Below, piece by piece: positions 1,690 to 59,140 of a DNA stretch of 64,000 bases (the stretch's first letter is position 1; the number at the start of each line of letters is the position of its first letter). The stretch spans positions 128,481,799-128,545,798 of the forward strand of contig OW121740.1 of the NCBI GenBank assembly GCA_933228675.1, written 5' to 3'. A program made the position numbers and the translations under genes. The stretch is from Stomorhina lunata. Taxonomy: Eukaryota > Arthropoda > Insecta > Diptera > Rhiniidae. Below the pieces are notes generated by a model, which ran no database searches, had not been told where the DNA came from, and was given only the letters and a program-made list of their open reading frames with translations.

Positions 1690-2585
1690 ACATTTCCATC
1701 GAAAACTACCCACACTGTCAACTTTTCTAAAGAAAACTAGTCACACTGTCAACTTTTCTATAGAAAACTAGTCACACTGTCAACTTTTCTATAGAAAACT
1801 AGTCACACTGTCAAACTTTCCTAAAGAAAACTAGTCACACTGTCAACTTTTCGAAAGAAAACTTGTTACACTGTCAACTTTTCTATAGAAAACCTGTCCC
1901 ACTGTCAACTTTTCTATAGAAAACTTGTCCCACTGTCAACTTTTCTATAGAAAACTTGTCCCACTGTCAACTTTTCTATAGAAAACTTGTCCCACTGTCA
2001 ACTTTTCTATAGAAAACTTGTCCCACTGTCAACTTTTCTATAGAAAACTTGTCCCACTGTCAACTTTTCTATAGAAAACTTGTCCCACTGTCAACTTTTC
2101 TATAGAAAACTTGTCCCACTGTCAACTTTTCTATAGAAAACTTGTCCCACTGTCAACTTTTCTATAGAAAACTTGTCCCACTGTCAACTTTTCTATAGAA
2201 AACTTGTCCCACTGTCAACTTTTCTATAGAAAACTTGTCCCACTGTCAACTTTTCTATAGAAAACTTGTCCCACTGTCAACTTTTCTATAGAAAACTTGT
2301 CCCACTGTCAACTTTTCTATAGAAAACTTGTCCCACTGTCAACTTTTCTATAGAAAACTTGTCCCACTGTCAACTTTTCTATAGAAAACTTGTCCCACTG
2401 TCAACTTTTCTATAGAAAACTTGTCCCACTGTCAACTTTTCTATAGAAAACTTGTCCCACTGTCAACTTTTCTATAGAAAACTTGTCCCACTGTCAACTT
2501 TTCTATAGAAAACTTGACCCACTGTCAACTTTTCTATAGAAAACTTGTCCCACTGTCTACTTTTCTATAGAAAACTTGTTCCTGG
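1690..2585. repeat. 31-bp satellite array A1
   Basis: About 28 monomers of 31 bp: 17-bp partner CTTGTCCCACTGTCAAC plus 14-bp palindromic core TTTTCTATAGAAAA. The left part (about 1690-1880) is a diverged version with CTAGTCACACTGTCAAC and TAAAG or CGAAAG changes in the core. The centre (about 1900-2500) is almost perfectly uniform, and single changes reappear in the last two or three copies. Divergence at the edge and uniformity in the centre are expected from unequal exchange. Confidence 0.95.
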
Positions 2586-3659
2586 TATTAAATTTCTCAT
2601 TTAAGCTACGACTAAAATGTAAATAAATTTTGTTTCTTAAATCTTTTGTTTTAAATTTTGCAGTAAAAGACTTTGTGAGGATATAAGACCATTTCGTTAG
2701 AAAGCTCTTGATTTACAAGGGAAATCTTAGCATATTTTTCAGTTTTTATTACTTCCTGTTAAAATCTCTATAAAGCCATAAAAATTTGTAATTCTAAGTG
2801 TATTTTTTAATAAATTTTTTATTAGTCCATAAACAATTTTTTAATGCTAATACGTCGAACATTTAAAACATTTTTGTTATTTTAGCATAAATTGTTTAAC
2901 TTCGAAATTAGGTCAATCACATATAAGAATGAAATTTATTTAAAACTATTTACCACAATCATAATTTCTTAGATTCTGTTCAATTTCTTAAAGTTATTGT
3001 TATTGTAGCTGATTTGAAATCTAATCATACAATAAAAATCTAGATTTCTTTGCCTTAAGCTAGAAATTAACAAACACCGCAAATCAATACGGCCCATTTT
3101 TTTCAAGTAAGTTATAATAAAAAAAAATTAGGATAATCAGTTCTATTCTAAAAACATCTAATGATTTCATTAGAGTGTTAGCTGTCATCACATTTTTGAC
3201 TAGAATTTGTGATACGTCTAAGTAGTTATAGGATTTTAAAATTAAATATTTGAGCTCATAGTAGCTCAAATATTTACTAAACATGATTTTTAAGTAATTG
3301 ATTATTCACGCCTTAACATTTTTTTTTTCATCAAAAACACTCAAAGCGAAAACAGAATGTTTTGCTTTTTTGGTATTAGAGGTATTTAGCCTAAATATTT
3401 TCCAACAAATTGCTTAGGTAAATAACTAAAGTCTGGCGTTTGATTAGTTTATTTAAGAAGTTTATGCTCGAGAGCTTAATATCATAAGCTCAAATAAGAT
3501 GGAGGTGTGACTAAGATAATGCTTGAATTTTGTCAGCTTAGTTAAAGAGTTGTTGGTAATAGAGAAAACTTAGAAATTAAGAATAAATACGTATTATTAA
3601 ATTACGGGGACAAAAATTCTTATATTTTGAGGACAAACAATTATGTTTTCTATTAAAGT
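2586..3659. other. AT-rich single-copy DNA
   Basis: No gene or element recognised. The only structured feature is the short perfect hairpin at 3243-3276, listed separately. Confidence 0.55.
3243..3276. other. perfect 14-bp stem hairpin
   Basis: TAAATATTTGAGCT, six-base loop CATAGT, then the exact reverse complement AGCTCAAATATTTA. No flanking U-run or gene gives it a function; it may be a chance or template-switch inverted repeat. Confidence 0.6.
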
Positions 3660-4482
3660 AAACCTAAAGGTGAGAAAAGTTACCTCTAGAAAAGATGGAA
3701 AAAAAATAGAAAATTCTATAAAAGTTTAGGTTAAAAAAAATGTTTATAGAAAAGCTGACAAAAGTTTGCTATAGTAAAACTTGAATCCGAGAAGAGCTTT
3801 TTATAGTAAGGCTAAATGTGAGAAGAGTTTTCTTAGAAAAATTTGAAGTGTGAAAGTTGTAAGTGATAAGAGTTTTCCATATATGTATAGAAAAGTTGTC
3901 GGTAAGATAAGTTTTCTATAGAAAAGTTGTCGGTAAGATAAGTTTTGTATAGAAAAGTTGTCGGTAAGATAAGTTTTCTATAGAAAAGTTCTCGGTAAGA
4001 TAAGTTTTCTATAGAAAAGTTGTCGGTAAGATAAGTTTTCTATAGAAAAGTTGTCGGTAAGATAAGTTTTCTATAGAAAAGTTGTCGGTAAGATAAGTTT
4101 TCTATAGAAAAGTTGTCGGTAAGATAAGTTTTCTAAAGAAAAGTTGTCGCCGGGATAAGTTTTCTATAGAAAAGTTGTCGGTAAGATGAGTTTTCTATAG
4201 AAAAGTTGTCGGCTTTCTATAGAAAGTTGTCGATAAGATAGGTTATTTTACCGACAACCTTTCTATAGAAAACTTATCTTACCGACAAATTTTATATAGA
4301 AAACTTATCTTACCGACAACTTTTCTATAGAAAATTTATCTTACCGACAACTTTTCTATAGAAAACTTATCTTACCGACAACTTTTCTATAGAAAAGTTG
4401 TCGGTAAGATAAGTTTTCTATATAAAATTTGTCGGTAAGATAAGTTTTCTATAGAAAGGTTGTCGGTAAAATAAGTTTCTAA
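3660..4482. repeat. 31-bp satellite array A2 with orientation switches
   Basis: Monomer: 17-bp partner GTTGTCGGTAAGATAAG plus core TTTTCTATAGAAAA. About 3660-3880 holds strongly decayed copies; regular copies run from about 3888. Orientation is direct to about 4240, reversed from 4243 to about 4390, and direct again to 4482. Within the array TAAAGATAAG-like and CGCCGGGATAAG variants occur singly. The reversed segment and the last direct segment are mirror copies (see 4243-4474). Confidence 0.92.
4243..4474. repeat. inverted duplication inside satellite A2
   Basis: About 90 bp at 4243-4332 are the reverse complement of about 4385-4474, around an axis near 4358.5, with a roughly 52-bp non-mirrored centre. 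The match includes private variants: TTATTTTACC at the start, ACCTTTC, and a CAAATTTTATATA monomer, mirrored at 4419-4431. Shared private changes show copying of a particular stretch, not merely inversion of a generic repeat. Confidence 0.85.
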
Positions 4483-4690
4483 AAATTTCGATAAAAACAA
4501 GAAATTTTTAAAAAATTTCTTATAGAAACAATAAATTTTTCAAAAATTTCCTATATAAATTAAAAAATTTTTTAAAATTTTCTATAAAATAAAAAATTTT
4601 TAAAAAATTCCCCATAAAATAATAAATTTTTTAAAAATTTCCTATAAAAATAAGAAATTTTTAAAAAATTTCCTACAAAAATAAAGCAGT
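4483..4690. repeat. degenerate AT-only tandem repeat
   Basis: Six or seven imperfect copies of an A/T unit of about 30 bp (TTTTTAAAAAATTTC, then CTATAAAAATAAGAAA). It abuts array A2 without a unique spacer and resembles the block at 1-150. Confidence 0.7.
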
Positions 4691-4714
4691 TTGTGTCTTA
4701 AGTCTTTTGACTGT

Positions 4715-4855
4715 GGGATAGAGTTTCTATAGAAAATTTGTCAATGGAATAAGTTTTCTTTAGAAAACTTGTCGCTGTGATAAGTTTTCTTTAGAAAACT
4801 TGTCGCTGGAATAAGTTTTCTTTAGAAAACTTGTCGCTGGGATAAGTTTTATTGG
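4715..4855. repeat. 31-bp satellite array A3, short
   Basis: Four to five copies: partner CTTGTCGCTGGGATAAG plus core TTTTCTTTAGAAAA, a core with one palindrome position broken (T-T instead of A-T). The partner is intermediate between A1 (CTTGTC start) and A2 (GATAAG end), supporting common ancestry. Confidence 0.88.
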
Positions 4856-4859: not shown

Positions 4860-5955
4860 AAAAAGTTGCCGTAGGGTTGAGTTTTCCGAAAAAAATTAGG
4901 TATAGGGACAGGGTTAATAATAGCGGTATGTTCAGATTATATTAAAATCTAATGATAGTGTCATTTTGATAATGTTACGGTGTTCAATTAATTGCTTTAA
5001 ATTGCTAATTAGTCTCTAGTTTTAATTTATTTTCAACATAAGTTTCTTATTTTTTTCAAAATTTATCTTTGGGATCTATTTATTTACTTACACACAAAAA
5101 CCTGCTACAACACCTCGTCCAAACAACTTAAATTCCTTTGAAATTAAAATAATATTCTAATTAATTTTCCACAAATACTTAAGAGACGGATAAAATATTT
5201 GCCACATGTTAATGTCACTGTTTACATTTAAGCATATTCCACTCTCAAATGATCATTTCCAAGAAATGATAATCAAATGAATCCTTAAATAGAAAAGCCT
5301 AACTAAAATTAAACCGATTTAAGATATTTCCTAAAACTTTCCTTAGTTTAGATTTCCTTTCTAACAAAATCACTTGAAATTCTACTGACTATTCTGGCTT
5401 TCTCATTAATCTAAATTTACTAACATGAGTCGTTTAAGCACGCGCAAAATGTAAAAATTAGACGTTAGAAAAACTTAAGAACAAAACTAAAAATAATTGT
5501 AAAAATCCTGAAAACAACCGTTTAAATATCAATCTTGAAAGACCAGTTGTAAGTTAAAGTTTTTGCCTGAAATGATGACGAAGAAGAACTGCAACCAGAA
5601 CCAGGGAAATTGCGGTGAAACGACTGAACAGGAAGACATTTGTAAAAAAAAATAAATGTATTGAATGGATTCAGAATCTTAGTTAAGATCTTCAAAGTTT
5701 GAGCCAACACACATTTAGCTAAAAAAAGTTGGCTTTTATAAATACGAGATATTTTTTGTGTGTTCAAACATTTGAGTTAAAATTTGGAAAAAAGACCAGA
5801 TAAAAATTTAAGGAACATTTCAAATATAGACAAGATTTGTATGAGATACGATTTAGGGGTATTCGGAAGTAATAAGGAAATATTTATAGCTTAATTGAGT
5901 TTTTCAGGGGAAATTAATTTCTGAACAAAGCATGGAAAAGTATCGCTATCGCCTA
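4860..5955. other. AT-rich single-copy DNA
   Basis: No gene recognised. An 81-codon open frame on the minus strand at 5522-5767 contains a serine run and no familiar domain; I do not call it a gene. Confidence 0.55.
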
Positions 5956-8346
5956 CTAGGCTATCGCCTACTTTTCTATAGAAATCTAGGGCTGTCGGCT
6001 ACTTTTCTATAGAAAACTAGGGCTGTCGCCTACTTTTCTATAGAAAACTAGGGCTGTCGCCTACTTTTTTATAGAAAACTAGGGCTGTCGCCTACTTTTC
6101 TATAGAAAACTAGGGCTGTCGCCTACTTTTCTATAGAAAACTAGGGCTGTCGCCTACTTTTCTATAGAAAACTAGGGCTGTCGCCTACTTTTCTATAGAA
6201 AACTAGGGCTGTCGCCTACTTTTCTATAGAAAACTAGGGCTGTCGCCTACTTTTCTATAGAAAACTAGGGCTGTCGCCTACTTTTCTATAGAAAACTAGG
6301 GCTGTCGCCTACTTTTCTATAGAAAACTAGGGCTGTCGCCTACTTTTCTATAGAAAACTAGGGCTGTCGCCTACTTTTCTATAGAAAACTAGGGCTGTCG
6401 CCTACTTTTCTATAGAAAACTAGGGCTGTCGCCTACTTTTCTATAGAAAACTAGGGCTGTCGCCTACTTTTCTATAGAAAACTAGGGCTGTCGCCTACTT
6501 TTCTATAGAAAACTAGGGCTGTCGCCTACTTTTCTATAGAAAACTAGGGCTGTCGCCTACTTTTCTTTAGAAAACTAGTGCTGTCGCCTACTTTTCTATA
6601 GAAAACTAGGGCTGTCGCCTACTTTTCTATAGAAAACTAGGGCTGTCGCCTACTTTTCTATAGAAAACTAGGGCTGTCGCCTACTTTTCTATAGAAAACT
6701 AGGGCTGTCGCCTACTTTTCTATAGAAAACTAGGGCTGTCGCCTACTTTTCTATAGAAAACTAGGGCTGTCGCCTACTTTTCTATAGAAAACTAGGGCTG
6801 TCGCCTACTTTTCTATAGAAAACTAGGGCTGTCGCCTACTTTTCTATAGAAAACTAGGGCTGTCGCCTACTTTTCTATAGAAAACTAGGGCTGTCGCCTA
6901 CTTTTCTATAGAAAACTAGGGCTGTCGCCTACTTTTCCACAGAAAACTAGGGCTGTCGCCTACTTTTCTATAGAAAACTAGGGCTGTCGCCTACTTTTCT
7001 ATAGGGCTGTCGCCTACTTTTCTATAGGGCTGTCGCCTACTTTTCTATAGAAAACTAGGGCTGTCGCCTACTTTTCTATAGAAAACTAGGGCTGTCGCCT
7101 ACTTTTCTATAGAAAACTAGGGCTGTCGCCTACTTTTCTATAGAAAACTAGGGCTGTCGCCTACTTTTCTATAGAAAACTAGGGCTGTCGCCTACTTTTC
7201 TATAGAAAACTAGGGCTGTCGCCTACTTTTCTATAGAAAACTAGGGCTGTCGCCTACTTTTCTATAGAAAACTAGGGCTGTCGCCTACTTTTCTATAGAA
7301 AACTAGGGCTGTCGCCTACTTTTCTATAGAAAACTAGGGCTGTCGCCTACTTTTCTATAGAAAACTAGGGCTGTCGCCTACTTTTCTATAGAAAACTAGG
7401 GCTGTCGCCTACTTTTCTATAGAAAACTAGGGCTGTCGCCTACTTTTCTATAGAAAACTAGGGCTTTCGCCTACTTTTCTATAGAAAACTAGGGCTTTCG
7501 CCTACTTTTCTATAGAAAACTAGGGCTGTCGCCTACTTTTCTATAGAAAACTAGGGCTGTCGCCTACTTTTCTATAGAAAACTAGGGCTGTCGCCTACTT
7601 TTCTATAGAAAACTAGGGCTGTCGCCTACTTTTCTATAGAAAACTAGGGCTGTCGCCTACTTTTCTATAGAAAACTAGGGCTGTCGCCTACTTTTCTATA
7701 GAAAACTAGGGCTGTCGCCTACTTTTCTATAGAAAACTAGGGCTGTCGCCTACTTTTCTATAGAAAACTAGGGCTGTCGCCTACTTTTCTATAGAAAACT
7801 AAGGCTGTCGCCTACTTTTCTATAGAAAACTAAGGCTGTCGCCTACTTTTCTATAGAAAACTAAGGCTGTCGCCTACTTTTCTATAGAAAACTAAGGCTG
7901 TCGCCTACTTTTCTATAGAAAACTAAGGCTGTCGCCTACTTTTCTATAGAAAACTAAGGCTGTCGCCTACTTTTCTATAGAAAACTAAGGCTGTCGCCTA
8001 CTTTTCTATAGAAAACTAAGGCTGTCGCCTACTTTTCTATAGAAAACTAAGGCTGTCGCCTACTTTTCTATAGAAAACTAAGGCTGTCGCCTACTTTTCT
8101 ATAGAAAACTAAGGCTGTCGCCTACTTTTCTATAGAAAACTAAGGCTGTCGCCTACTTTTCTATAGAAAACTACGGCTGTCGCCTACTTTTCTATAGAAA
8201 ACTAAGGCTGTCGCCTACTTTTCTATAGAAAACTAAGGCTGTCGCCTACTTTTCTATAGAAAACTAAGGCTGTCGCCTACTTATCTATAGAAAACTAGGG
8301 CTGTCGACTACTTTTCTATAGAAAACTAGGGCTGTCGCATACTTTT
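5956..8346. repeat. 31-bp satellite array A4
   Basis: About 77 monomers: partner CTAGGGCTGTCGCCTAC plus core TTTTCTATAGAAAA. Two subfamilies occupy blocks: CTAGGG up to about 7800, CTAAGG from about 7800 to 8280, then CTAGGG again in the last two copies. Two adjacent 23-bp units (starts near 7000 and 7023) lack eight bases between two TAG triplets. The array is otherwise very uniform and has the highest GC of the family. Confidence 0.97.
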
Positions 8347-9270
8347 CCTTAATCCTTTTCTTAGTGAACACCCCTAATATTACTCCAATCAAAGCCTACA
8401 CATTATAATATCTATATCATCTCATACAATTTAAATCGAAAAGTTCATTCAATTCTTCATACATTTATCAAATCACAAAATACCATCCAATAAATAAAAC
8501 ATCCGTCCATTGGCCATTGAAAGAAGAAATCTTAACAATATTTACATATTCCATATAAATATTCATTTATCCTGCTTTTTAGAGGACAGAATTCTTTCCC
8601 AATGTCGTCTTTTCAATTTATCTAGAATTTTTTTTAGTTACCTTTTTTCTACAATTTTATTATTTTGTGATTTTAGAAAATTGAACAAGTTTAGCTTGTT
8701 TTTTTCTTTAGAACATCATCATCATACGTTTAACGATTTACTTCTATTTTGCATTTCATTTACGGTAATTATTAGACAAAGTCTCCCTGAAATCAACCGA
8801 AGCCAACTATTTTCTTATGCAAATAAATAAATAAATACAATTTTCTTTAATGTCAAATACAAGTCACAAAACTTTAAATTGTGCTGGCTGTTGGTTTATT
8901 CAGGCTAATTCATAAAACCAGCATTGTTTTTGTTTAGTTCTGCTATTTGCATTTATATCTCCGTTCGTCTGTCTGGTTGCCTTCCTGATTTGGTTGACTT
9001 TTTTTTTGGTTGTGAGCTAAAGATATTATCAATGCCAAATGCCGCTTATAAAAAGCTACTTAAAATACTTGGGTCCAAGTCCTCTTTAAACAATATTAAT
9101 ATATATTGCTCATAACTGTGCTATGGGAGGCTTGAGGTAAGAAAAGGTTGTACCTGGAATAGGGTTTACATTTTCTAATACAAATGACAATCCAAAAAAA
9201 ATATTTCGAATTATATTTTTTGGAAATCTTGACTTAGTCCATGACTAGTTCTATACCCATCTCTAAGCTC
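8347..9270. other. AT-rich single-copy DNA
   Basis: Two open frames on the + strand (106 codons at 8510-8830, 63 codons at 8924-9115) are hydrophobic or low-complexity and show no domain; the second has a cysteine-rich stretch but nothing recognisable. A short AAAT run is at 8821-8837. No gene is called. Confidence 0.5.
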
Positions 9271-18430: not shown

Positions 18431-21415
18431 TTATCAAAAATTTTTCTATAGAAAATTTTGCAATAAAAAATTTTTCTACACAAATTTTTTCATCAAAACT
18501 TTTTCTATAGCAAAATTTTTCGAAAAATATTTCTAGCGAAAATTTTTCTATAAAAAAATATTTCTAGCGAAAATTTTTCTATAGAAAAATATTTCTAGCG
18601 AAAATTTTTCTATTGACAAATATTTCTAGCGAAAATTTTTCTATAGAAAAATATTTCTAACGAAAATTTTTGTATAGAAAAATATTTCTAACGAAAATTT
18701 TTCTATAGAAAAATATTTCTAACGAAAATTTTTGTATAGAAAAATATTTCTAACGAAAATTTTTCTATAGAAAAATATTTCTAACGAAAATTTTTCTATA
18801 GAAAAATATTTCTAACGAAAATTTTTCTATAGAAAAATATGAATGGGAAATCTTGTGACACATAATTATTAAATAATATTAAATATTTCCAACGAAAATT
18901 TTTCTATAGAAAAATATTTCTAACGAAAATTTTTCTATAGAAAAATATTCCTAACGAAAATTTTTCTATAGAAAAATATTTCTAACGAAAATTTTTCTAT
19001 AGAAAAATATTTCTAACGAAAATTTTTCTATAGAAAAATATTTCTAACGAAAATTTTTCTATAGAAAAATATTTCTAACGAAAATTTTTCTATAGAAAAA
19101 TATTTCTAACGAAAATTTTTCTATAGAAAAATATTTCTAACGAAAATTTTTCTATAGAAAAATATTTCTAACGAAAATTTTTCTATAGAAAAATATTTCT
19201 AACGAAAATTTTTCTATAGAAAAATATTTCTAACGAAAATTTTTCTATAGAAAAATATTTCTAACGAAAATTTTTCTATAGAAAAATATTTCTAACGAAA
19301 ATTTTTCTATAGAAAAATATTTCTAACGAAAATTTTTCTATAGAAAAATATTTCTAACGAAAATTTTTCCATAGAAAAATATTTCTATCGAAAATTTTTC
19401 TATAGAAAAATATTTCTATCGAAAATTTTTCTATAGAAAAATATTTCTATCGAAAATTTTTCTATAGAAAAATATTTCTATCGAAAATTTTTCTATAGAA
19501 AAATATTTCTATCGAAAATTTTTCTATAGAAAAATATTTCTATCGAAAATTTTTCTATAGAAAAATATTTCTATCGAAAATTTTTCTATAGAAAAATATT
19601 TCTATCAAAAATTTTTCTATAGAAAAATATTTCTATCGAAAATTTTTCTATAGAAAAATATTTCTATCGAAAATTTTTCTATAGAAAAATATTTCTATCG
19701 AAAATTTTTCTATAGAAAAATATTTCTATCGAAAATTTTTCTATAGAAAAATATTTCTATCGAAAATTTTTCTATAGAAAAATATTTCTATCGAAAATTT
19801 TTCTATAGAAAAATATTTCTATCGAAAATTTTTCTATAGAAAAATATTTCTATCGAAAATTTTTCTATAGAAAAATATTTCTATCGAAAATTTTTCTATA
19901 GAAAAATATTTCTATCGAAAATTTTTCTATAGAAAAATATTTCTATCGAAAATTTTTCTATAGAAAAATATTTCTATCGAAAATTTTTCTATAGAAAAAT
20001 ATTTCTATCGAAAATTTTTCTATAGAAAAATATTTCTATCGAAAATTTTTCTATAGAAAAATATTTCTATCGAAAATTTTTCTATAGAAAAATATTTCTA
20101 TCGAAAATTTTTCTATAGAAAAATATTTCTATCGAAAATTTTTCTATAGAAAAATATTTCTATCGAAAATTTTTCTATAGAAAAATATTTCTATCGAAAA
20201 TTTTTCTATAGAAAAATATTTCTATCGAAAATTTTTCTATAGAAAAATATTTCTATCGAAAATTTTTCTATAGAAAAATATTTCTATCGAAAATTTTTCT
20301 ATAGAAAAATATTTCTATCGAAAATTTTTCTCTAGAAAAATATTTCTATCGAAAATTTTTCTATAGAAAAATATTTCTATCGAAAATTTTTCTATAGAAA
20401 AATATTTCTATCGAAAATTTTTCTATAGAAAAATATTTCTATCGAAAATTTTTCTATAGAGAAATATTTCTATCGAAAATTTTTCTATAGAAAAATATTT
20501 CTAGCGAAAATTTTTCTATATAAAAATATTTCTATCGAAAATTTTTCTATAGAAAAATATTTCTATCGAAAATTTTTCTATAGAAAAATATTTCTATGGA
20601 AAATTTTTCTATAGAAAAATATTTCTATCGAAAATTTTTCTATAGAAAAATATTTCTATCGAAAATTTTTCTATAGAAAAATATTTCTATCGAAAATTTT
20701 TCTATAGAAAAATATTTCTATCGAAAATTTTTCTATAGAAAAATATTTCTATCGAAAATTTTTCTATAGAAAAATATTTCTATCGAAAATTTTTCTATAG
20801 AAAAATATTTCTATCGAAAATTTTTCTATAGAAAAATATTTCTATCGAAAATTTTTCTATAGAAAAATATTTCTATCGAAAATTTTTCTATAGAAAAATA
20901 TTTCTATCGAAAATTTTTCTATAGAAAAATATTTCTATCGAAAATTTTTCTATAGAAAAATATTTCTATCGAAAATTTTTCTATAGAAAAATATTTCTAT
21001 CGAAAATTTTTCTATAGAAAAATATTTCTATCGAAAATTTTTCTATAGAAAAATATTTCTATCGAAAATTTTTCTATAGAAAAATATTTCTATCGAAAAT
21101 TTTTCTATAGAAAAATATTTCTATCGAAAATTTTTCTATAGAAAAATATTTCTATCGAAAATTTTTCTATAGAAAAATATTTCTATCGAAAATTTTTCTA
21201 TAGAAAAATATTTCTATCGAAAATTTTTCTATAGAAAAATATTTCTATCGAAAATTTTTCTATAGAAAAATATTTCTATCGAAAATTTTTCTATAGAAAA
21301 ATATTTCTATCGAAAATTTTTCTATAGAAAAATATTTCTATCGAAAATTTTTCTATAGAAAAATATTTCTATCGAAAATTTTTCTATAGAAAAATATTTC
21401 TATCGAAAATTTTTC
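18431..21415. repeat. 31-bp satellite array A5
   Basis: About 96 monomers: core TTTTCTATAGAAAA plus partner ATATTTCTATCGAAAAT. The partner is itself core-like (TTTCTATCGAAA), so the monomer looks like a diverged dimer of a 15-16 bp half-unit. Three subfamilies occur in order along the array: CTAGCG (about 18530-18650), CTAACG (about 18655-19375) and CTATCG (about 19380 to the end). Decayed copies mark both edges. One interruption, at 18841-18890. Confidence 0.97.
18841..18890. other. non-satellite patch inside array A5
   Basis: Bases 18841-18870 are an exact copy of 18083-18112, 758 bp upstream outside the array. Then comes AAATAATATTAAATATTTCC, which merges back into the monomer. The satellite has the CTAACG form on both sides, so the event occurred within an existing block. 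Confidence 0.92.
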
Positions 21416-31740: not shown

Positions 31741-31744
31741 GTTT

Positions 31745-37155: not shown

Positions 37156-37159
<4 letters not shown>

Positions 37160-39440: not shown

Positions 39441-41395
39441 AAAGGAGATTACATCTGAAAAATTTTTGATAACAAAATTTTGTATAAAAAAAAAATTTAT
39501 AGAAAAATTTTTATACTTTTAATAAAAAAAAATCATATACAAAATTTTTTTATCAAAAATGTTTCTTTAGAAAATTTTTCTATACAAAAATATTTTTTTC
39601 GAATTTTTTTTTATAGAAAAATATTTTTATGAAATACTTTTTTATAGAAAAATACTTTGATAGAAAATTTTTCTATAGAAAAATTTTTTTATTGAACATA
39701 TTTTTATAGAATTTTTTTATCGAAAATTTTTCTATAGAAAATTTTTCTATCGAAAATTTTTCTATAGAAAAACTTTTTTAACGAAAATTTTCCTATAGAA
39801 AATTTTTTTTATTGAAAACTTCTCTGTATAAATTTTTTCTTAATGACAATTTTTCTGTAGAAAACATTTTTTATGAAGATTTTTCTTATAGAAATTTTTA
39901 TATCGAAAATTTTCTATAGAAAATTTTTTTTATCGAAAATTTTTCTAAAAATATTTTTTTTAAAAAATTTTTGTAAACAAATTTTTTTATTTAAAATTTT
40001 TCTATAGAAAAATTATTTTATCAAAAATTTTTGTATAGAAAATTTCTTTAAAGGAAAACTTTTTTATCTACAATTTTCTTATAGCAACATTTTTTAATCG
40101 AAAATTTTTCTATAGAAATATTTTTTTATCGAAAATAAATAAAATAATATAAAATTTTTTAATGAAAATTTTTTTATAGAAAATTTTTTTTATCAAAAAT
40201 TTCTCTATAGAAAAATTTTCAATAAAAAAAATTTTCTATAGAAAATTTTTCGGAAACAAATTTTCGATAAAAAATTTTTCTACAGAAAAATTTTCGATAA
40301 AAAATTTTTTCTATAGAAAAATTTTCAATAGAAAAATTTTAGAAAAATTTTCTTTAAAAAAATTTTCCTTGAAAAAATTTTTCTATACAAAAATATGCTA
40401 TAAAAAAATTTTATCGAAAATTTTTTCATAAAAAAATTTTTTATAGAAAAATTTTCGATAAAAAAATTTTCTATAGAAAAATGTTCGATAAAAAAATTTT
40501 TCTATAGAAAAATTTTCGATAAAAAAATTTTTCTATAGAAAATTTTTTTCTATAAAAAAATTTTTATATAGAAAAATTTTCGATAAAAAATTTTTTTTTT
40601 ATAGAAAAATTTTCGATAAAAAATTTTTTTATAGAAAAATTTTCGATAAAAAAAAATTTTTCTATAAAAAAATTTTCGATAAAAAAATTTTCTATAGAAA
40701 AATTTTCGATAAAAAAATTTTCTATAGAAAAATTTTCGATAAAAAAATTTTTCTATAGAAAAATTTTCGATAAAAAAATTTTCTCCATAGAAAAATTTTC
40801 GATCAAAAAAATGTTTCTATAGAAAAATTTTCGATAAAAAAATTTTTTCTATAGAAAAATTGTCGATAAAAAATTTTTTCTATAGAAAAATTTTCGATAA
40901 AAAAATTTTTTCTATAGAAAAATTTTCGATAAAAAAATTTTTTCTATAGAAAAATTTTCGATAAAAAAATGTTTCTATAGAAAAATTTTCGATAAAAAAA
41001 TTTTTCTATAGAAAAATTTTCGATAAAAAATTTTTTCTATAGAAAAATTTTCGATAAAAAATTTTTTCTATAGAAAAATTTTCGATAAAAAATTTTTTCT
41101 ATAGAAAAATTTTCGATAAAAAAATTTTTCTATAGAAAAATTTTTGATAAAAAAGATTTTTCTGTAGAAAAATTTTCGATAAAAAAATTTTTCTATAGAA
41201 AATTTTCGATAAAAAAATTTTGTGTAGAAAAATTTTCGATTAAAAAAAAATTTCTATAGAAAAATTTTCGATAAAAAAAATTTCTATAGAAAAATTTTTG
41301 ATAAAAAAACTTTTTCTGTAGAAAAATTTTTGGATAAAAAAAATGTTTCTATAAATTTTCGATAAAAAAAATTTTTCTATAGAAAAATTTTCGAT
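39441..41395. repeat. degenerate AT-only array A7
   Basis: About 60 units of 30-32 bp: core TTTTCTATAGAAAA plus ATTTTCGATAAAAAA. Length of the A and T runs varies from copy to copy. The left third is very decayed, the right part (40560-41395) fairly regular. The last monomer runs straight into dispersed repeat F2. Confidence 0.9.
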
Positions 41396-41530
41396 GAAAA
41401 AACCGACTTTGCTAACATACGAATCCCAACTGAGTTTCAATAATGATCGTGATATTTACGAAAATTACAAAATGTCTTCGGCTTCTGCTGGTATGGGCTG
41501 CCTACTCCTGGGGATAATGAAGTTACGAAA
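41396..41530 (+). mobile_element. dispersed repeat family F2, copy 1
   Basis: CCGACTTTGCTAACATACGA, then AATGATCGTGATATTTACG, AAAATTACAAA and CTTCGGCT. Matches 46077-46200 and, in part, 52065-52135. An open frame through it (to 41669) includes DRDIYENYK, conserved in the other copies, so it may be decayed coding DNA of a retroelement; class unknown. Confidence 0.55.
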
Positions 41531-47720: not shown

Positions 47721-49290
47721 AGAGTTTTGTATTGGGAATTTAATAAACTAAATAAATACCACAATTAAGAAGCAGATTAAAGAAGCTCCTATTATAGGTC
47801 AAGCTTTTAAGAAATTTAGTTTTTCTTTCTTTTGTTTCCCTTTATTAAAGAGGCAAAGGATTTCTTCTTAACTTAAACAAAACCATTAATTTTGTACAAT
47901 AGAAATTTCTCCCTTAATTAATAGAATAAAAAAATTTTTAAATTTATTTTAACAGCTAATATTTCTTATCCTAGTTCCAATATTTTCTCTTCTTATTTAC
48001 AACAAAACGTATAACTTGTTTGTTTCACCTGTTCTCCATTAGTTTTATGACCCATAGTGTTGCCTTTATTTTGTGGCCAGTAGATAATGACGTTGTTAAA
48101 TGTTAAAAGTGTATCTTAACCATCAACAAACAACAAAATCTCTTTAAGGCAGTTTAAAACCAGAATTGCTGGATTTTTCCTATCAAATGAAAAACTAAAC
48201 GCAAAACTTTAAGTAACAAAAATTTACGCATTTCCCAATGCCACATCACAAAGGCGAACGAACGAAAGAACGGACGAACGAATGAACGTAACATACAACA
48301 TGCAAACAATTCAACCATTCATACTTCAATTTAAGATTTATTTTCATTTGGTCATCATCAATTTTCCCAGTTTGAAATGTTTGGAATGAACGAAAGAAAG
48401 AAAGAAACAACAGCAGCAGCCAAGAAGATTTGGAAATAAAGAAATGTGTCACTAATGTTAACAATTGAACTGTTTATTTAAATTGTGGCCCCTGTAACAA
48501 ATTCGCATTTTTTTCTGTCTGTAAGTCTATTTTAGATTTAGCTGACATTATGGCTATTTAAGCGTGTAATTCTTTCAATGAATTTGAACTCTTAAGTCTT
48601 TTGGAAAACAATATGTGTCCATTTGTTGGATGTTAATGTTAAACTTGTCCTCTTTTTTCCGTTTGGGTTCCTTTGTATGTGGTTTAATGATTTAGTTGGA
48701 GTCTATTCTAAAAATTCTTAAATTTTTTTTTATTTTATTTTATTTTATTTTATTTTATTTGGGCTTTTTTGTGGTTGTTTCCCCACTTGAAGTTGATGCG
48801 GTTAATTGCTGGTAATTATATGTTTTTTTTTTTCTTTAGTTAAATATATTTATTGCTTTAAAACGTTTTTAAATGCTTCCCTTGTTCATGTCGATATCTT
48901 TTGTTATTTCTTGAGATATTTATGTTATTAAAATATTTCTCTGAAGGTGGACATGTAAAGATTGGGGTAACATGTAGTAGATTTCTTTTTTTTTATTATT
49001 TTACCTTTAAATTATAGAAAATTATGTAGTATCATATGTTGTTTTGTGCTAAATTAAAAATCTTTAAGAAATCACAAATGCTAGATTAAGTAAAGTTAAA
49101 TTTCATCAATTGCTTTACATGAGAGTTGATCCATTACAATATTTTCAAATTGGATGGTTTTAGATGAAGTTTATATCAATGGTTGTTTCATTTATGTACT
49201 GATATTAAACGGAGTATTATTTTGTATTAAAAATTTTTCTATGTAAAAATTTGTTAATATTCACATCTTGAAAATTTTGTTATTTTTTGA
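47721..49290. other. single-copy DNA with microsatellites
   Basis: A (TATTT)8 run at 48731-48770, degenerate GAAC and GAAA repeats at 48250-48290 and 48388-48408. No gene recognised; a 72-codon minus-strand frame (48246-48464) overlaps the simple repeats. Confidence 0.55.
48731..48770. repeat. TATTT pentanucleotide microsatellite
   Basis: Eight uninterrupted copies of TATTT preceded by a T run. Confidence 0.95.
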
Positions 49291-51030
49291 AAATTTTCTT
49301 ATCAAAAATTTTTTCTATAGATAATTTTCTTCTCAAAAATTTTTTTATTAAAAATTTTTTTATGAAAAATTTTTCTATAGAAAGTTTTTTTATCAAAAAT
49401 TTTTCTATATAAAATTTTTTTATCAAAAATTTTTCTATATAAAATGTTTTTATCAAAAATTTTTCTATAGAAAAATTTTTCTATAGAAAATTTTTTTATC
49501 AAAAATTTTTCTATAGAAAAATTTTTCTATAGAAAAATTTTTCTATAGAAAATTTTTTCTATAGAAAATTTTTTTATCAAAAATTTTTCTATAGAAAATT
49601 TTTTTATCAAAAATTTTTCTATGGAAAATTTTTTTATCAAAAATTTTTCTATAGAAAATTTTTTTATCAAAAATTTTTCTATAGAAATTTTTTTTTTATC
49701 AAAAATTTTTCTATAGAAAATTTTTTTATCAAAAATTTTTCTACAGAAAATTTTTTTTTATCAAAAATTTTTCTATAGAAAATTTTTTTATCAAAAATTT
49801 TTCTATAGAAAGTTTTTTATCCAAAATTGTTCTATAGAAAATTTTTTTAATCAAAAATGTTTCTATCAGAAACTTTTTTATCGAAAATTTTTCTATAGAA
49901 AATTCTTTTATCCAAAATTTTTCTATCGAAAATTGTTTTATTAAATATTTTTCTAAAGAAAATTCTTTTATCAATAATTTTTCTACAGAAAATTCTTTTA
50001 TCAAAAATTTTTCTATAGAAAATTTTTTTATTAAAAATTTTTCTATAGAAAATTCTTTTATCAAAATTTTTTCTAAAGAAAATTCTTTTATCAAAAATTT
50101 TTCTAAAGAAAATTCTTTTATCAAAAATTTTTCTATAGAAATTTCTTCTGTCAAAAATTTTTCTATCAAAAATCTTTTTATCAAAAATTTTTCTGCAGAA
50201 AATTTCTTCATTAAAAATATTTCTAGAGAAAATTTTTTTATTAAAAATTTTTCTACAGAAAATTTTTTTATCAAAAATATTTCTATGGCAAATTTTCTTA
50301 TCAAAAATTTTTTTATCAAAAATCTTTCATAGAAAGTTTTTTAAATTGTTCTATCAAAAATAAAAAAATTTTCTATCGGAAATTTTTTTTATCGAAAAAT
50401 TTTCTATCGGAAATTTTTTTTATCGAAAAATTTTCTATAGAAAAAAACAGATTTGTGATCAAATGCGAATAGTTATTCTTTTTGAAAATTCTTTTATTAA
50501 AAATTTTTTTATTAAAACTATTAAAATTTTTTTTTATCAAAAATTTTTCGATAGAAATTTTTTCGATAAAATTTTTCTTCAGAAAATTTTTTTATCAAAA
50601 ATTTTTTCGATAAAATTTTTCTTCAGAAAATAAATTTTTTTTTTACAAAAATTTTTCTATTAAAAATTTTTCTGTAGAAAATTCTTTTATAAAAATTTTT
50701 TTTATAGAAAAAAAAAATTTTTTTTCTACTGAAATTTTTTTTGTTAAAAACTGTTCTATAGAAAATCTTTTATTATTTTTGATAATTCTACAGAAATTTT
50801 TTTCATAGAAGTTTTTTGTATCAAAAATTTTTCTTTAGAAAATTTTTCTATAAAAAATTTGTTTATCAAAACTTTTTCTTTAGAAAATTCTTTTATCAAA
50901 AATTTTTCCAAAGAAAATTTTTTCTATTAATTAAATTTAAAGTTCGAAAAATTATTCCCAACTAATGAAAATTCTTTTAACAAAAATTTTTCTATAGAAA
51001 ATTTTTTTTTATCAAAAATTTTATATAGAT
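49291..51030. repeat. degenerate AT-only array A8
   Basis: Units of about 30 bp: TTTTTCTATAGAAAATTT then TTTTATCAAAAA. Regular at 49290-49800, increasingly varied (TCTAAAG, TCTACAG, TCTATCG) to 50330, then very decayed, with unique text at about 50440-50480 and 50930-50960. A 192-codon minus-strand frame (49741-50319), rich in KFLIKEFS, is a reading of this repeat, not a gene. Confidence 0.88.
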
Positions 51031-51035: not shown

Positions 51036-51142
51036 TAAATCAAAGGAAAAAGCTCAGATTATCGGCTGAACAAAAGTAAACACAAATATTTTTCGTCACT
51101 TCCCGCATTCAGCCGATAATCTAAGCTTTTGCCTTTGATTTA
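51036..51142. other. 34-bp stem inverted repeat next to the hammerhead motif
   Basis: Left arm 51036-51069 (TAAATCAAAGG to TTATCGGCTGA), right arm 51109-51142 (TCAGCCGATAA to CCTTTGATTTA), two mismatches, 39-base loop. Probably the edge of a retroelement remnant that includes the motif 76 bp downstream. Confidence 0.8.
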
Positions 51143-51217
51143 CAAATATAATTCGTAATTATTGTGTTTGTTAAATAGGAAATAATGTGAGGTTTTCGAT
51201 CTGTCTAAAGAGGATGC

Positions 51218-51264
51218 TCCTCCTGAAGATGATGGCCTAACCAACCATCGAAACGCGTCGAGGA
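51218..51264 (+). ncRNA. small hammerhead ribozyme-like motif
   Basis: Read on the + strand: stem I 5' strand TCCTC (51218-51222); core CTGAAGA (51223-51229, fits CUGANGA); one extra T (51230); stem II GATGG (51231-51235) with CCATC (51245-51249), loop CCTAACCAA; core GAA (51250-51252); minimal stem III ACGCGT (51253-51258), a palindrome; C at 51259 as the cleavage-site base; stem I 3' strand GAGGA (51260-51264), exactly complementary to TCCTC. Small hammerheads with a reduced, palindromic stem III are known from Penelope-like elements and cleave as dimers. The extra T next to stem II departs from the classical core, so activity is uncertain. Confidence 0.65.
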
Positions 51265-51308
51265 ATTGCTTGTCTCTACAAACATTTTTTATCTTTTATT
51301 AATAAATT

Positions 51309-51340
51309 GTCTATTACATTAATCAATAAATGTAATAGAC
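51309..51340. other. perfect 12-bp stem hairpin
   Basis: GTCTATTACATT, eight-base loop AATCAATA, AATGTAATAGAC. Lies 45 bp after the hammerhead motif, perhaps the end of the same element. Confidence 0.75.
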
Positions 51341-51479
51341 TGGGATCAAGTGCAAATATTTTTTCTTTTTAAATTGAAATTTTTTTATTAAAAATTTTGT
51401 TAATAGAAAATTTTTGTAACCAAAAATTTTTCGATAGCATATCTTTTTTATCCAAAATTTTTCTGAAAAAATTTTATCT

Positions 51480-54319: not shown

Positions 54320-56110
54320 ATTTTTTTTTTTAATTTGATGGTCGTCAATGTTTTCTTTAGAAAATTTGAGAATCATCAAAGTTTTCTTTAGAAAATCTGA
54401 GGATCATCAAAGTTTTCTTTAGAAAATCTGAGGATCATCAGAGCTTTCTTTAGAAAATTTGAGGTTTATTAAAGTTTTCTATAGAAAATTTGAGGATCAT
54501 TAAAGTTTTCTTTAGAAAATTTGAGGATCACCAAAGTTTTCTTTAGAAAGTTCAAGGATCATTAAAGTTTTCTATAGAAAATTTGAGAATCATCAAAGTT
54601 TTCTTTAGAAAATTTGAGGATCATGGAAGTTTTGTTTAGAAAATTTGAGGATCATCAAAGTTTTCTTTAGAAAATTTGAGGATCATGAAAGTTTTGTTTA
54701 GAAAATTTAAGGATCATCAATGTTTTATTTAGAAAATTTTAGGATCATTTAAGTTTTCTTTAGAAAATTTTACGTTCATTTAAATTTTCTTTAGAAAATT
54801 TTACGATCATTTAAGTTTTCTTTAGAAAATTTGATGATCATCAAAGTTTTCTTTAGAAAATTTGAGGATCATCAAAGTTTTCTTTAGAAAATTTGAGGAT
54901 CATCAAAGTTTTCTTTAGAAAATTTGAGGATCATGGAAGTTTTGTTTTCTTTAGAAAATTTGAGGATCATCAAAGTTTTCTATAGAAAATTTGATGATCG
55001 TCAAAGTTTTCTTTAGAAAATTTTACGATCATCAAAGTTTTCTATAGAAAATTTGATGATCATCGAAGTTTTCTATAGAAAATTTGATGATCATCGAAGT
55101 TTTCTATAGAAAATTTGATGATCATCGAAGTTTTCTATAGAAAATTTGATGATCATCGAAGTTTTCTGTAGAAAATTTGATGATCATCGAAGTTTTCCTT
55201 AAAAAATTTGAGGATCATCAAAGTTTTCTTTAGAAAATCTGAGGATCATCAAAATTTTCTTTAGAAAATATGAGGATCATCAAAGCTTTCTTTAAAAAAT
55301 TTGAGGATCATCAAAGTTTTCTTTAGAAAATTTGAGGATCATCAAAGTCTTCTTTAGAAAATTTGAGGTTCATCAAAGTTTTCTTTAGCAAATTTGAGGA
55401 TCATTAAAGTTTTCAATAGAAAATTTGAGGATCATTAAAGGTTTCTTTAGCAAATTTTACGATCATTAAAGTTTTCTATAGAAAATTTCAGGATCATCAA
55501 ATTTTTCTTTAGAAAATTTGAGAATCATCAAAGTTTTCCTTTGAAAATGTGAGGATCATCAAAGTTTTCTTTAGAAAATTTGAGGATCATCAAAGTTTTC
55601 TTTAGAAAATTTGAGGATCATCAAAGTTTTCTTTAGAAAATTTGAGGATCATCAAAGTTTTCTTTAGAAAATTTGAGGATCATCAAAGTTTTCTTTAGAA
55701 AAGGATCATTAAAATTTTCTGTAGACAATTTAAAGATCATCAAAGTTTTCTATCGAAAATTTGGGGATCATCAAAGTTTTCGTTAGAAAATTTTTTGATG
55801 ATCGTCAAAGTTTTCTTTCGAAAATTTGATGATCGACAAAGTTTTCTTTGGAAAATATGATAATCGTCAAAGCTTTTTTCAGAAAATTTGATGATTAAAA
55901 AATTTCATGATCGTTAAAGTTTTCTTTAGAAAATTTTATGATCGTCAAAGTTTTCTTTAGAAAATTTTATGATCGTAAAAGTTTTCCTTAGAAAATTTGA
56001 TGATCCTAAAAGTTTTCTTTAGAAAATTTGATGATCGTCAAAGTTTTCTTTAGAAAATTTGATAATAGTCAAAGTTTTCTTTAGAAAACTTGGTAATCGC
56101 CATAGTTTGT
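54320..56110 (+). repeat. 31-bp satellite array A9
   Basis: About 57 monomers: core TTTTCTTTAGAAAA plus partner TTTGAGGATCATCAAAG. Variants include TTTGATGATCATCGAAG with a TTTTCTATAGAAAA core (about 55020-55190), TTTTACGATCATT and TTTGATGATCGTC (after 55790). More varied between copies than A1, A4 or A6. Same family as A10, opposite orientation. Confidence 0.95.
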
Positions 56111-57430
56111 ACCACTTTTTTTAACTTCCAATGGTCCGCCTTTGTACCTCCCTCCCACTTTTTTTAATTTCACTTATGATGTCTATTTTCATTTTGCATT
56201 CGTTTTAGCTATTAAAATCGCCGTCACCATTTCGGTCATCAATTTCACTCATATGTAAAAAGAAAAATAATCATGACAATATTTTCTAAAATAAAACATA
56301 ATCAAATAAATCTTCCAACATTAACAACTAACAGTCATGAACCAATGCCACAGACCAGGTTAACTAGACAATGATATAGTGGAAATCTTTATATTATTTA
56401 GGTCAAGAAGAAACATTTACGAGCCACAGAGCAAACAACAACAAGAGGAATAAATACAAAAACGTTATATTTTACCAACAAACGGAGATGAAAAGTAGAT
56501 TTTTCCCCATGACATAAAAAATAGTAAAAATTGAAAATTAACTTTATTTTGCTTTGATATGAAAAGCTAAATAACATATTAAAGCTAAATGGGAAAATGA
56601 AAAATAACTTAGCCTGAGAAAAAAAATAAATTAAACATAAGAAAGAAAATGCTGATGTTATGAGTAGTAATCCAAAGTAGACAAATGAATTAAAGGAAGA
56701 CAGACCAAGACAGACAGACAGACACTCAAACGCATGTTATCTTAATCAAAAGCACATTTGAACATTTTTGACCATAAACATTATTATAAATATATATAAG
56801 TAAAGTAATTTGAACCAGGCAAACAAAAAAGAAAACTACAAAGAATCAGCGCAAGAAAATTACCTACAATTTAGATGTTAAGACAAAAATAGAATAGCTA
56901 CAGTTTAGATCTATTATAAAGAATATGTGTAAGTATAGAACATCAGCAACTTTGATAGCAACTAATAACAATAATATTAAGCACATTAACAATATTAAAA
57001 CAATACACGAGCAAAGGAAAACTTAAATAATCATAGACTGAAAAGAACAGAGTAATCATAAATAGTTGATGTACCCACTCTAATGGCCAAATTAAGGCAT
57101 GTGAGATTTTCTTGTCCATGATTAGATCGCATTAAGTTTCTACGTTGTTCTGGATTCCAAACAAGAACATCTTAATTTCAAATTATTTATATATCTTTAT
57201 AAATTAATATAAGTATGGAAAGGGGTCAATTGCAAAATCCTAGTGGGATCATGTTTAATAAACAGCCTCAAATTGAGTCAACTGGTTGGGGTGTTAGAAG
57301 ATTGATCGGAATAATAAGAAACTTATGTATGTGTGAAAATTAACAATTTAATACGGCATAAAAGCTTTTTTTTCATATAAGTGTGATATAGTTAAAAAAA
57401 GGTTGAAACTATTTGTCACAGAAATATTTT
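56111..57430. other. single-copy DNA between inverted satellite arrays
   Basis: About 1.3 kb, AT-rich but not repetitive; GACA-type repeat near 56701-56725. No gene recognised. Confidence 0.5.
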
Positions 57431-59140
57431 ATTTCAAAAACTTTAATGATCATAAAATTTTCTAAAGAAAACTTTGATGATCATCAAATTTTCTAAAGAA
57501 AACTTTGACGATCATCAAATTTTCTAAAGAAAACTTTGACGATCATCAAATTTTCTAAAGAAAACTTTGACGATCATCAAATTTTCTAACGAAAACTTTG
57601 ACGATCATCAAATTTTCTAACGAAAACTTTGACGATCATCAAATTTTCTAAAGAAAACTTTGATGATCATCAAATTTTCTAAAGAAAAGTTTGACGACCA
57701 TCAAATTTTCTAAAGAAAACTTTGACGATCATCAAATTTTCTAAAGAAAACTTTGACGATCATCAAATTTTCTAAAGAAAACTTTGACGATCATCAAATT
57801 TTCTAAAGAAAACTTTGACGGTCATCAAATTTTCTAAAGAAACCTTTGACGATTATCAAATTTTCTAAAGAAAACTTCGACGATCATCAAATTTTCTAAA
57901 AAAAAACTTTGACGATCATCAAATTTTCTAAAGAAAACTTTGACAATCATCAAATTTTCTAAAGAAAACTTTGACAATCATCAAATTTTCTAAAGAAAAC
58001 TTTGACAATCATCAAATTTTCTAAAGAAAACTTTGACAATCATCAAATTTTCTAAAGAAAACTTTGACGATCATCAAATTTTCTAAAGAAAACTTAGACG
58101 ATCATCAAATTTTCTAAAGAAAACTTTGACGATCATCAAATTTTCTAAAGAAAACTTTGACGATCATCAAATTTTCTAAAGAAAACTTTGACGATCATCA
58201 AATTTTCTAAAGAAAACTATGATGATCATCAAATTTTCTAAAGAAAACTTTGATGATCATCAAATTTTCTAAAGAAAACTTTGATGATCATCAAATTTTC
58301 TAAAGAAAACTTTGATGATCATCAAATTTTCTAAAGAAAACTTTGATGATCATCAAATTTTCTAAAGAAAACTTTGATGATCATCAAATTTTCTAAAGAA
58401 AACTTTGATGATCATCAAATTTTCTAAAGAAACTTTAATGATCATCAAATTTTCTAAAGAAAACTTTAATGATCATCAAATTTTCTAAAGAAAACTTTGA
58501 TGATCATCAAATTTTCTAAAGAAAACTTTGATGATCATCAAATTTTCTAAAGAAAACTTTGATGATCATCAAATTTTCTAAAGAAAACTTTGATGATCAT
58601 CAAATTTTCTAAAGAAAACTTTGATGATCATCAAATTTGCTAAAGAAAACTTTGATGATCATCAAATTTTCTAAAGAAAACTTTGACGATCATTAAATTT
58701 TCTAAAGAAAACTTTGACGATCATCAAATTTTCTAAAGAAAACTTTGACGATCATCGAATTTTTTAAAGAAAACTTTAAAGATCCTCAAATTTTTAATAA
58801 ATTTTGGTAAACCCTAATTTTTTAAAGAAAACTTTGATGATCCTCAATTTTTCTAAAGTAAACTTTGATGATCCTCAAATTTTTTTTAAGAAAACTTTGA
58901 GGATTCCTCAAATTTTCTAAAGAAAACTTTAATGATCACCAAATATTCAAAAGAAAACTTTGATGGTCCTCAAATTTTGTAAAGAAAACTTTTATGATCA
59001 TGAAATTTTTTAAAGAAAACTATGGCGATCACCATATTTCCTCTAGAAAACTTTGAAGATCTCCAAATTTTCTAAAGAAAATTTTGACGATTACCAAATT
59101 TTCTAAAGAAAAGTTTGACGATCACCAAATTTTCTCCAGA
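57431..59140 (-). repeat. 31-bp satellite array A10, inverted relative to A9
   Basis: About 55 monomers; on the + strand core TTTTCTAAAGAAAA plus partner CTTTGACGATCATCAAA, the reverse complement of A9. Left half mostly GACGATCATC with some GACAATCATC; from about 58210 mostly GATGATCATC. In the latter the partner contains TTTGATGATCATCAAA, a perfect 16-bp palindrome. The right end (58760-59140) is strongly decayed. Confidence 0.95.

What the first reader, a model, noticed from the sequence alone, without database searches (positions are those of the whole stretch)
1690..59140. Modular 31-bp satellite superfamily: constant palindromic core, array-specific 17-bp partner
At least eight separate arrays share a 31-bp period and a 14-bp core (TTTTCTATAGAAAA or a one-position variant), while the other 17 bp differ between arrays but are uniform within each: CTTGTCCCACTGTCAAC, GTTGTCGGTAAGATAAG, CTTGTCGCTGGGATAAG, CTAGGGCTGTCGCCTAC, ATATTTCTATCGAAAAT, GTTGACGATAGGAAGAC, TTTGAGGATCATCAAAG. 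Several partners align with each other (G/CTTGTC start, GATAAG end). A fixed core with divergent partner suggests the core is under constraint, such as protein binding or phased bending (31 bp is about three helical turns), or is the recombination point that seeds new arrays. I know of no described family with this plan.
Basis: partly seen in the sequence, partly recalled or inferred. Interest (0 to 1): 0.88.

Follow-up and report, generated by a model that had tools for sequence, protein, structure and literature searches.

The report
Fly satellites sharing one palindromic core
A fly genome holds many short tandem-repeat arrays that keep one 14-base mirror-like core while the bases between the cores differ from array to array, and the core seems to be where arrays begin, end and get copied.

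Summary
[quoted passage not shown] Nine 31-bp arrays and one 30-bp array share TTTTCTATAGAAAA or a one-base variant. Genome-wide, exact core-N17-core occurs at 381,929 places. In 89 listed rows over 12 Mb of chromosome 1, 40 of 41 17-bp partners are distinct, yet they are diverged relatives of one sequence near ATTTTCGATAAAAAAAT. The period is not fixed (21, 23, 29-31, 33, 34, 36). In 21 arrays with GC-containing partners, core mutations appear as often as expected (125 vs 130.4) but are found in several copies less often (84 vs 107.2; 0 of 5000 permutations). Array ends fall inside the core in 26 of 34 cases, about 42% expected. Shared bending and maintained hairpin pairing were tested and not supported. 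Best reading: a conserved-box satellite superfamily whose core is a cis-acting site for copying and exchange. A like plan is described in Meloidogyne nematodes (PMC3694981): a new variant of a known kind. The factor acting on the core is unknown.

The parts
1713..2579 (+). 31-bp array, core TTTTCTATAGAAAA, partner CTTGTCCCACTGTCAAC
3886..4478 (+). 31-bp array, partner GTTGTCGGTAAGATAAG; runs into a core-less AT-rich 31-bp array at a core
4481..4685 (+). degenerate 31-bp array of the second family (F2, TTTCCTATAAAAAT...)
4724..4850 (+). short 31-bp array, core TTTTCTTTAGAAAA, partner CTTGTCGCTGG(A/G)ATAAG
5955..8347 (+). 31-bp array, partner CTAGGGCTGTCGCCTAC
18432..21442 (+). 31-bp array, AT-rich partner ATATTTCTATCGAAAAT
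31755..33546 (+). 31-bp array, partner GTTGACGATAGGAAGAC; 43% of copies differ at core position 1
39555..41402 (+). degenerate 31-bp array, partner ATTTTCGATAAAAAAAT
49289..50923 (+). degenerate 30-bp array, partner TTTTTTTATCAAAAAT
54332..56108 (+). 31-bp array (two rows), core TTTTCTTTAGAAAA, partner TTTGA(G/T)GATC(A/G)TCAAAG
57437..59135 (-). same family as 54332-56108 in inverted orientation
60045..62020 (+). 33-bp arrays, core TTTTCTCTAAAGAAAA (4-bp centre), 17-bp partner ATTTTCTTAATGAAATT
63561..63954 (-). 33-bp array of the same family, inverted

Best explanation
This is one dispersed satellite superfamily of the Stomorhina lunata genome with a two-speed monomer: a slow palindromic box (TTTTCT-n-AGAAAA, usually TTTTCTATAGAAAA) and a fast partner, usually 15-18 bp. 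Shown: a shared core, related but diverged partners, array ends concentrated in the core, and core mutations that arise about as often as expected but are found in several copies less often. Inferred: the box is a cis-acting site that arrays need in order to be copied or exchanged (strand exchange, or a bound protein that promotes it). Copies with a broken box tend to be left behind, and new arrays begin and end at the box with whatever partner variant was there. Because one altered 31-bp copy can hardly affect the fly's fitness, I think this filter acts at the level of copying (molecular drive) rather than through organismal selection.
For: Core-N17-core at 381,929 places, reversed-pattern control 0. 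Core-anchored rows: 40 of 41 17-bp partners distinct; after orienting, mean 12.0 of 17 identical to their consensus. Partner-anchored reciprocal: 100 places listed of 193, 61 with letters, 45 arrays; one random row per array, about 30 with a 14-bp middle, 92.8% identical to the core and 43% exact. Spread test, 21 GC-partner arrays, sites permuted within array and base type: singletons in core 125 vs 130.4 expected; variants in more than one copy 84 vs 107.2 (0 of 5000); variants at 10% or more 17 vs 29.2 (1 of 5000); second set alone 57 vs 66.9 (200 of 5000). It holds without any one array, at most 5 of 800 permutations. Array ends inside the core: 14 of 19 and 12 of 15, against 0.421 and 0.411 from simulated ends on real window flanks; together p=3.8e-5. 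AT-partner arrays show no depletion: 122 vs 125.3.
Against: A first comparison of A/T sites over 21 arrays was not significant (13 of 21 lower in core, p=0.26). In the first nine arrays an unstratified Fisher test fell from p=0.007 to 0.069 without L029. The core-less F2 family shows a slight depletion at the corresponding sites (85 vs 95.6, 244 of 5000); the 33-bp arrays show none that is significant (26 vs 29.0). Core variants can take over: three window arrays have a fixed one-base core variant and 43% of copies in 31755-33546 differ at position 1. Of the 39 arrays of the chromosome 1 sample 28 differ from the core by two or more bases. L014 (36 bp) pairs a partner that by eye resembles that of 31755-33546 with the core TTTTCTTTATAAAGAAAA; one partner-anchored array has a 9-bp middle (C2:37.3 Mb). 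The two anchored searches are not strictly comparable: the partner used as anchor is one sub-family. Copies within an array are not independent. No protein, other species or recombination assay was available.
Confidence: 0.6

Rival explanations
1. The core is a binding site for a chromosomal protein (AT-hook, satellite-binding or homodimeric DNA-binding protein) and is kept by selection on chromosome function; recombination at the core is incidental.
For: 14-bp palindrome, as expected of a dimer site, shared across a superfamily; core variants spread less.
Against: The gap between the half-sites TTTTCT and AGAAAA varies among families (2, 4, 5, 6 bp), unusual for a rigid dimer site. Organismal selection on single copies would be very weak (inference). 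The array-end bias needs a further cause. The CENP-B box pattern (recalled) is not enriched in the window (42 vs 35.3 expected, 15 of 100 shuffles as many).
Confidence: 0.25
2. No constraint: the fixed core is ancestry plus AT-richness. Recent amplifications descend from a few monomers, partners drifted, and ends look core-located because T and A runs match AT-rich flanks.
For: Partners are related; AT-partner arrays show no spread difference; a core-less AT-rich family is similarly abundant in the sample.
Against: Simulated ends on real flanks give 41-42%, observed 26 of 34. Base-stratified depletion in two sets. Fixing the core leaves the partner at 71%, fixing a partner leaves the core at 93%, with the caveat on anchors given above.
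Confidence: 0.1
3. The arrays are the tandem-repeat arms of foldback-type transposons and spread with them.
For: Three inverted pairs: window 54332-56108/57437-59135, window 60045-62020/63561-63954, L038 1669-2293/3586-4001. Drosophila FB elements have arms made of short tandem repeats (recalled).
Against: The three interiors (1.3-1.5 kb) give no BLAST match to each other. Among masked 300-bp flanks of the core-bearing arrays of window and sample, those of GC-partner arrays gave one weak match (72 bp, 76%, right flank of 1713-2579). The other GC-partner arrays have no inverted mate in the stretch held, though stretches are short.
Confidence: 0.05
4. Structural role: phased bending or cruciform formation conserves the palindrome.
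For: Some members are predicted to be strongly curved (L018 21 bp, L001; also the core-less L016).
Against: End-to-end/contour ratio runs from 0.09 to 0.96 among members (wedge values recalled). No covariation across the dyad in 1003 cores: 63 doubly changed copies vs 61.1 expected over the seven pairs.
Confidence: 0.05

Closest known systems
Meloidogyne chitwoodi/fallax satDNA library with Box 1 and Box 2 (PMC3694981; abstract and passages read)
   Same: Divergent satellites share a short conserved box; junctions between monomers lie at the boxes; the authors propose that the boxes promote array rearrangement.
   Different: Monomers about 170 bp, also mixed in higher-order repeats; Box 1 resembles the CENP-B box. 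Here units are 21-36 bp, the box is an AT palindrome without CENP-B likeness, arrays are dispersed along chromosome 1, and nearly every 17-bp partner in the listed rows is different.
Primate alpha satellite with CENP-B box (recalled, and as cited in passages of PMC3694981)
   Same: Short protein-binding box kept while the rest of the monomer diverges.
   Different: Centromeric monomers and a known protein; neither shown here.
Drosophila foldback (FB) element arms with short tandem repeats (recalled)
   Same: Tandem repeats of similar length, here sometimes in inverted pairs.
   Different: No shared interior between the three inverted pairs.
Scattered satDNAs of the oyster Crassostrea gigas (PMC8268682; search listing and start of abstract only)
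   Same: Satellites scattered across a genome (title).
   Different: No sequences were compared.

Membership tests
Conserved-box satellite library (Meloidogyne type) | Divergent satellite monomers share one short conserved box | tested here: met
   with the core fixed, partners are 71% identical to their consensus; with a partner fixed, the core is 92.8% identical to canonical
Conserved-box satellite library (Meloidogyne type) | Array or monomer junctions lie at the box | tested here: met
   26 of 34 array ends in the core, about 0.42 expected
[quoted passage not shown]
   the core has no CG; recalled CENP-B pattern with up to 2 mismatches 42 vs 35.3 expected in the window
Foldback transposon | Arrays as inverted arms around a shared interior | tested here: not met
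   three inverted pairs, interiors without BLAST match to each other
Foldback transposon | Target-site duplication at outer ends | not tested
   no empty site sought for these pairs
Centromeric satellite | Confined to the centromere and bound by CENP-A | tested here: inconclusive
   arrays within one base of the core lie in 8 of 20 stretches spread over chromosome 1, so not confined; CENP-A not testable

The most novel reading that the evidence does not exclude
The core is a selfish cis-acting amplification or exchange box: array copies multiply only if it is intact, so it is kept by selection at the level of DNA copying, while partners turn over so fast that almost each array in a 728-Mb genome has its own. 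The many arrays would then give replicate measurements of molecular drive.
Probability: 0.35. Interest if true: 0.75.

Novelty: new variant of a known kind. Interest (0 to 1): 0.6.

Why it matters
Whether short conserved boxes in satellites are kept by protein function or by the mechanics of array copying is an open question, and few satellites are usually at hand to test it. Here one genome holds many small arrays with one box and different partners. Two tests (spread of new variants, position of array ends) can be repeated on each array, and both point to the box as part of the copying process. It is also a large component: 18-40 bp arrays made up 37,111 of 190,920 bases sampled on chromosome 1, those within one base of the core 16,806.

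Tried and rejected
Bending: wedge-model curvature (parameters recalled, Bolshoy type) varies from 0.09 to 0.96 among members. Hairpin or cruciform maintenance: no dyad covariation. The partner's weak dyad symmetry: 66 of 120 pairs vs 37.5 in 15 partners and 32 of 64 vs 16.3 in eight GC-containing ones; 189 of 328 vs 121.1 in 41 partners, but 23 of 64 vs 17.1 (171 of 3000) in the eight GC-rich ones of that set. The families are related, so I build nothing on it. Single-copy core seeds: no exact core in 175,420 unmasked bases. Spatial clustering of partners: 17 pairs nearer than 150 kb mean 10.59 identical, 803 farther pairs 9.67, not tested further. A 411-bp MITE-like element (L027 4203-4613, relative at window 51108-51358) lies beside AT-type 30-bp arrays at two loci; it was not found beside the GC-partner arrays compared. 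CENP-B box: not enriched. Literature: I saw only the listings (0, 3, 0, 2, 0, 3, 1 and 0 papers); none of the titles or abstract starts describes such a satellite; one search covered the core letters and returned two papers on other subjects. The genome note PMC11109694 has no occurrence of satellite, repeat or heterochromatin.

Rows and parts dropped: one search printed 100 places; I kept 89, dropping 11 further hits in arrays already listed (a few same-array pairs remain). One search printed 100 places, 61 with letters; a first tally used 43 rows chosen by hand and left out the C2:37.3 Mb array, so I redid it with all 61 and quote that. In one search the core variant used to find L032-L040, and the substitution that mirrors it, were left out for those loci; L033 1021-1989, L035 3465-3686, L037 868-1441 and L040 2167-2793 (mixed or more degenerate parts), window 4724-4850 (four copies) and the 21-, 23- and 33-bp arrays were not used. 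In the end tests L033 left, L035 right, L037 left, the right ends of the second L038 array, L039 and L011, and the 21- and 23-bp arrays were not examined. The L029 left end (971) is doubtful; without it 25 of 33. The sample filter (18-40 bp units) leaves out L015 3-1984, TRF periods 15 and 118, in a stretch with 25 exact cores.
Full report
WHERE IT IS. The window is C1:128,481,799-128,545,798 of a 728,027,400-base genome. Its mitochondrial ND2 is nearest to blow flies, 94%. The genome note of Stomorhina lunata (PMC11109694; first of three parts of the text, plus passages) gives a longest scaffold of 186,698,790 bp and a mitochondrion of 16.49 kb, the lengths of C1 and C104 here. I take the organism as settled: the locust fly, chromosome 1.

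THE OBSERVATION. Searches confirm ten arrays with the shared core, and 266 exact cores in the window. Of the 53 arrays of window and sample, 21 come within one mismatch of the core; shuffled monomers give 0.03 on average.

GENOME SCALE. Exact core-N17-core occurs at 381,929 places (the pattern is its own reverse complement), the reversed pattern at none. The first 100 listed places of the partner-anchored pattern lie on contigs C1, C2, C7 and C10. In 20 stretches of 10 kb along chromosome 1 (all 20 analysed), 39 arrays of 18-40 bp unit and at least 150 bp were found in 17 stretches, 37,111 of 190,920 bases. Seven have the exact core and four more are one base off, in 8 of the 20 stretches; their periods are 21, 23, 29, 30 and 31. 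A second family (F2, AAAAATTTCCTATAAAAATAAGAAATTTTTG, 29-31 bp) keeps most of its monomer across distant stretches, unlike the core family. One 5-kb stretch on C2 held no such array.

CORE AGAINST PARTNER. A search for core, gap of 3-32, and a core with one rare substitution gave 2552 + 2315 places. From the 100 listed (chromosome 1, 1.86-14.08 Mb) I kept 89 rows: gap 17 in 41, 16 in 17, 15 in 12, others 19. Of the 41 17-bp partners 40 are distinct up to reverse complement; oriented to fit, their consensus is ATTTTCGATAAAAAAAT with mean identity 12.0 of 17; pairwise best identity is 9.69 against 6.93 for shuffled partners. Nine GC-containing partners from window, L001 and sample are likewise related, 7.56 against 5.28. 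So the partner is homologous but fast. The reciprocal search, anchored on a common AT-type partner, found 86 + 107 places; 100 were listed and 61 printed with letters, from 45 arrays. One random row per array, where the middle is 14 bp (about 30 arrays), it is 92.8% identical to the core and exact in 43%. That anchor is one sub-family, so the comparison is indicative. Exceptions: a C2 array with a 9-bp middle, and L014, whose 36-bp unit holds a partner that by eye resembles that of 31755-33546 next to TTTTCTTTATAAAGAAAA. In the 33-, 34- and 36-bp members the half-sites TTTTCT and AGAAAA stay, the partner stays 17-18 bp, and the centre grows from 2 to 4, 5 or 6 bp.

DO CORE CHANGES SPREAD? Each array was aligned to its own unit without favouring the core. 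A first comparison of A/T sites over 21 arrays was not significant (p=0.26). I then split variants into those seen in one copy and those in several. Unstratified, nine GC-partner arrays gave Fisher p=0.007 (0.069 without L029). Permuting sites within array and base type: singletons in core 59 vs 61.1, spread variants 27 vs 40.4 (2 of 5000). Other groups: ten AT-partner arrays 122 vs 125.3, three 33-bp arrays 26 vs 29.0, thirteen F2 arrays 85 vs 95.6 (244 of 5000). Twelve further arrays (L001, and eleven from nine loci chosen from the list for GC content in the partner before their sequence was read): 57 vs 66.9 (200 of 5000). All 21: singletons 125 vs 130.4, spread 84 vs 107.2 (0 of 5000), at 10% or more 17 vs 29.2 (1 of 5000). 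No single array carries the result. Copies within an array share history, so these permutation figures are guides, not exact probabilities. Core variants are not barred altogether: 4724-4850, 54332-56108 and 57437-59135 have a fixed one-base variant, and 43% of copies in 31755-33546 differ at position 1.

WHERE ARRAYS END. For arrays with GC-containing partners the register of each examined end was compared with simulated ends placed uniformly and joined to real flanks of the window. Inside the core: 14 of 19 (null 0.421, p=0.005) and 12 of 15 in the second set (null 0.411, p=0.0026); together 26 of 34; 17 of 34 lie in the first six core bases met (null 0.193). Two ends pass directly into core-less AT-rich 29-31 bp repeats at a core-like box (window 4478; L036 3302). 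The left ends of 3886 and 31755 are both followed, outside the array, by ATATATGGAAAACT, perhaps an old, altered core.

WHAT WAS DISFAVOURED. Shared curvature, pairing across the dyad, single-copy core seeds, CENP-B box, a common foldback interior.

MECHANISM. Shown: fixed box, fast partner, core-located ends, core variants that arise but spread less. Inferred: the box is needed for copies to be multiplied or exchanged, by strand exchange or through a protein bound there. I prefer selection at the level of copying to organismal selection because one altered copy among tens in one of very many arrays can hardly matter to the fly. A protein is not excluded and may be the agent.

KNOWN KINDS. Meloidogyne satellites (PMC3694981, abstract and passages) share a 17-bp Box 1 among satellites of 32-64% identity, with junctions at conserved boxes, and the authors propose that the boxes promote rearrangement. 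The plan is therefore known. Different here are the tiny unit, the palindromic AT box unlike the CENP-B box, dispersal along a chromosome with almost private partners, and the spread and end tests. No description of this fly's satellites showed in the listings; most subscription papers are not in that library.

Noticed in passing
window 24367-28254; L021 1982-7523: DNA transposon with about 1.5-kb terminal inverted repeats in the window (98.5-98.7% alike), ends CACAGTG, 5-bp target duplication CATCA, and an empty-site relative near 42911-42960. The L021 copy encodes pieces matching the transposase of 6pqn (E 4e-33 and 7e-42) and weakly RAG1L (E 0.017); no Pfam match. I recall 6pqn as a Transib transposase, whose terminal repeats are usually short.
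   Followed up: partly
window 34313-38376: A reverse transcriptase reading frame (PF00078, 35327-36994) with a poly-A tail sits between two blocks of a 12-bp satellite TATGTCTTAGTC, which also forms 9407-16559. It may be a satellite-targeting non-LTR retroelement (recalled parallels: TRAS/SART).
   Followed up: no
window 54332-59135, 60045-63954; L038 1669-4001: Three inverted pairs of same-family arrays about 1.3-1.5 kb apart, with unrelated interiors. In L035 a short array in the opposite orientation adjoins directly (3465-3686).
   Followed up: partly
L027 4203-4613; window 51108-51358: MITE-like element with 102-bp perfect inverted repeats in L027, and a relative in the window, next to 30-bp AT-type arrays about 15 Mb apart.
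   Followed up: partly
L013, L016, L017, L020, L022, L027, L028, L030: Second abundant 29-31 bp family (AAAAATTTCCTATAAAAATAAGAAATTTTTG), most of the monomer shared between loci; the L016 unit is predicted to be strongly curved.
   Followed up: partly
L033, L034: Partners containing TATCGATA, which I recall as the DREF/BEAF recognition sequence of Drosophila.
   Followed up: no
window 3840-3886 and 31740-31755: Outside the left ends of two arrays with different partners the same stretch AGTTTTCCATATAT occurs, perhaps a remnant of an older altered core copy.
   Followed up: no
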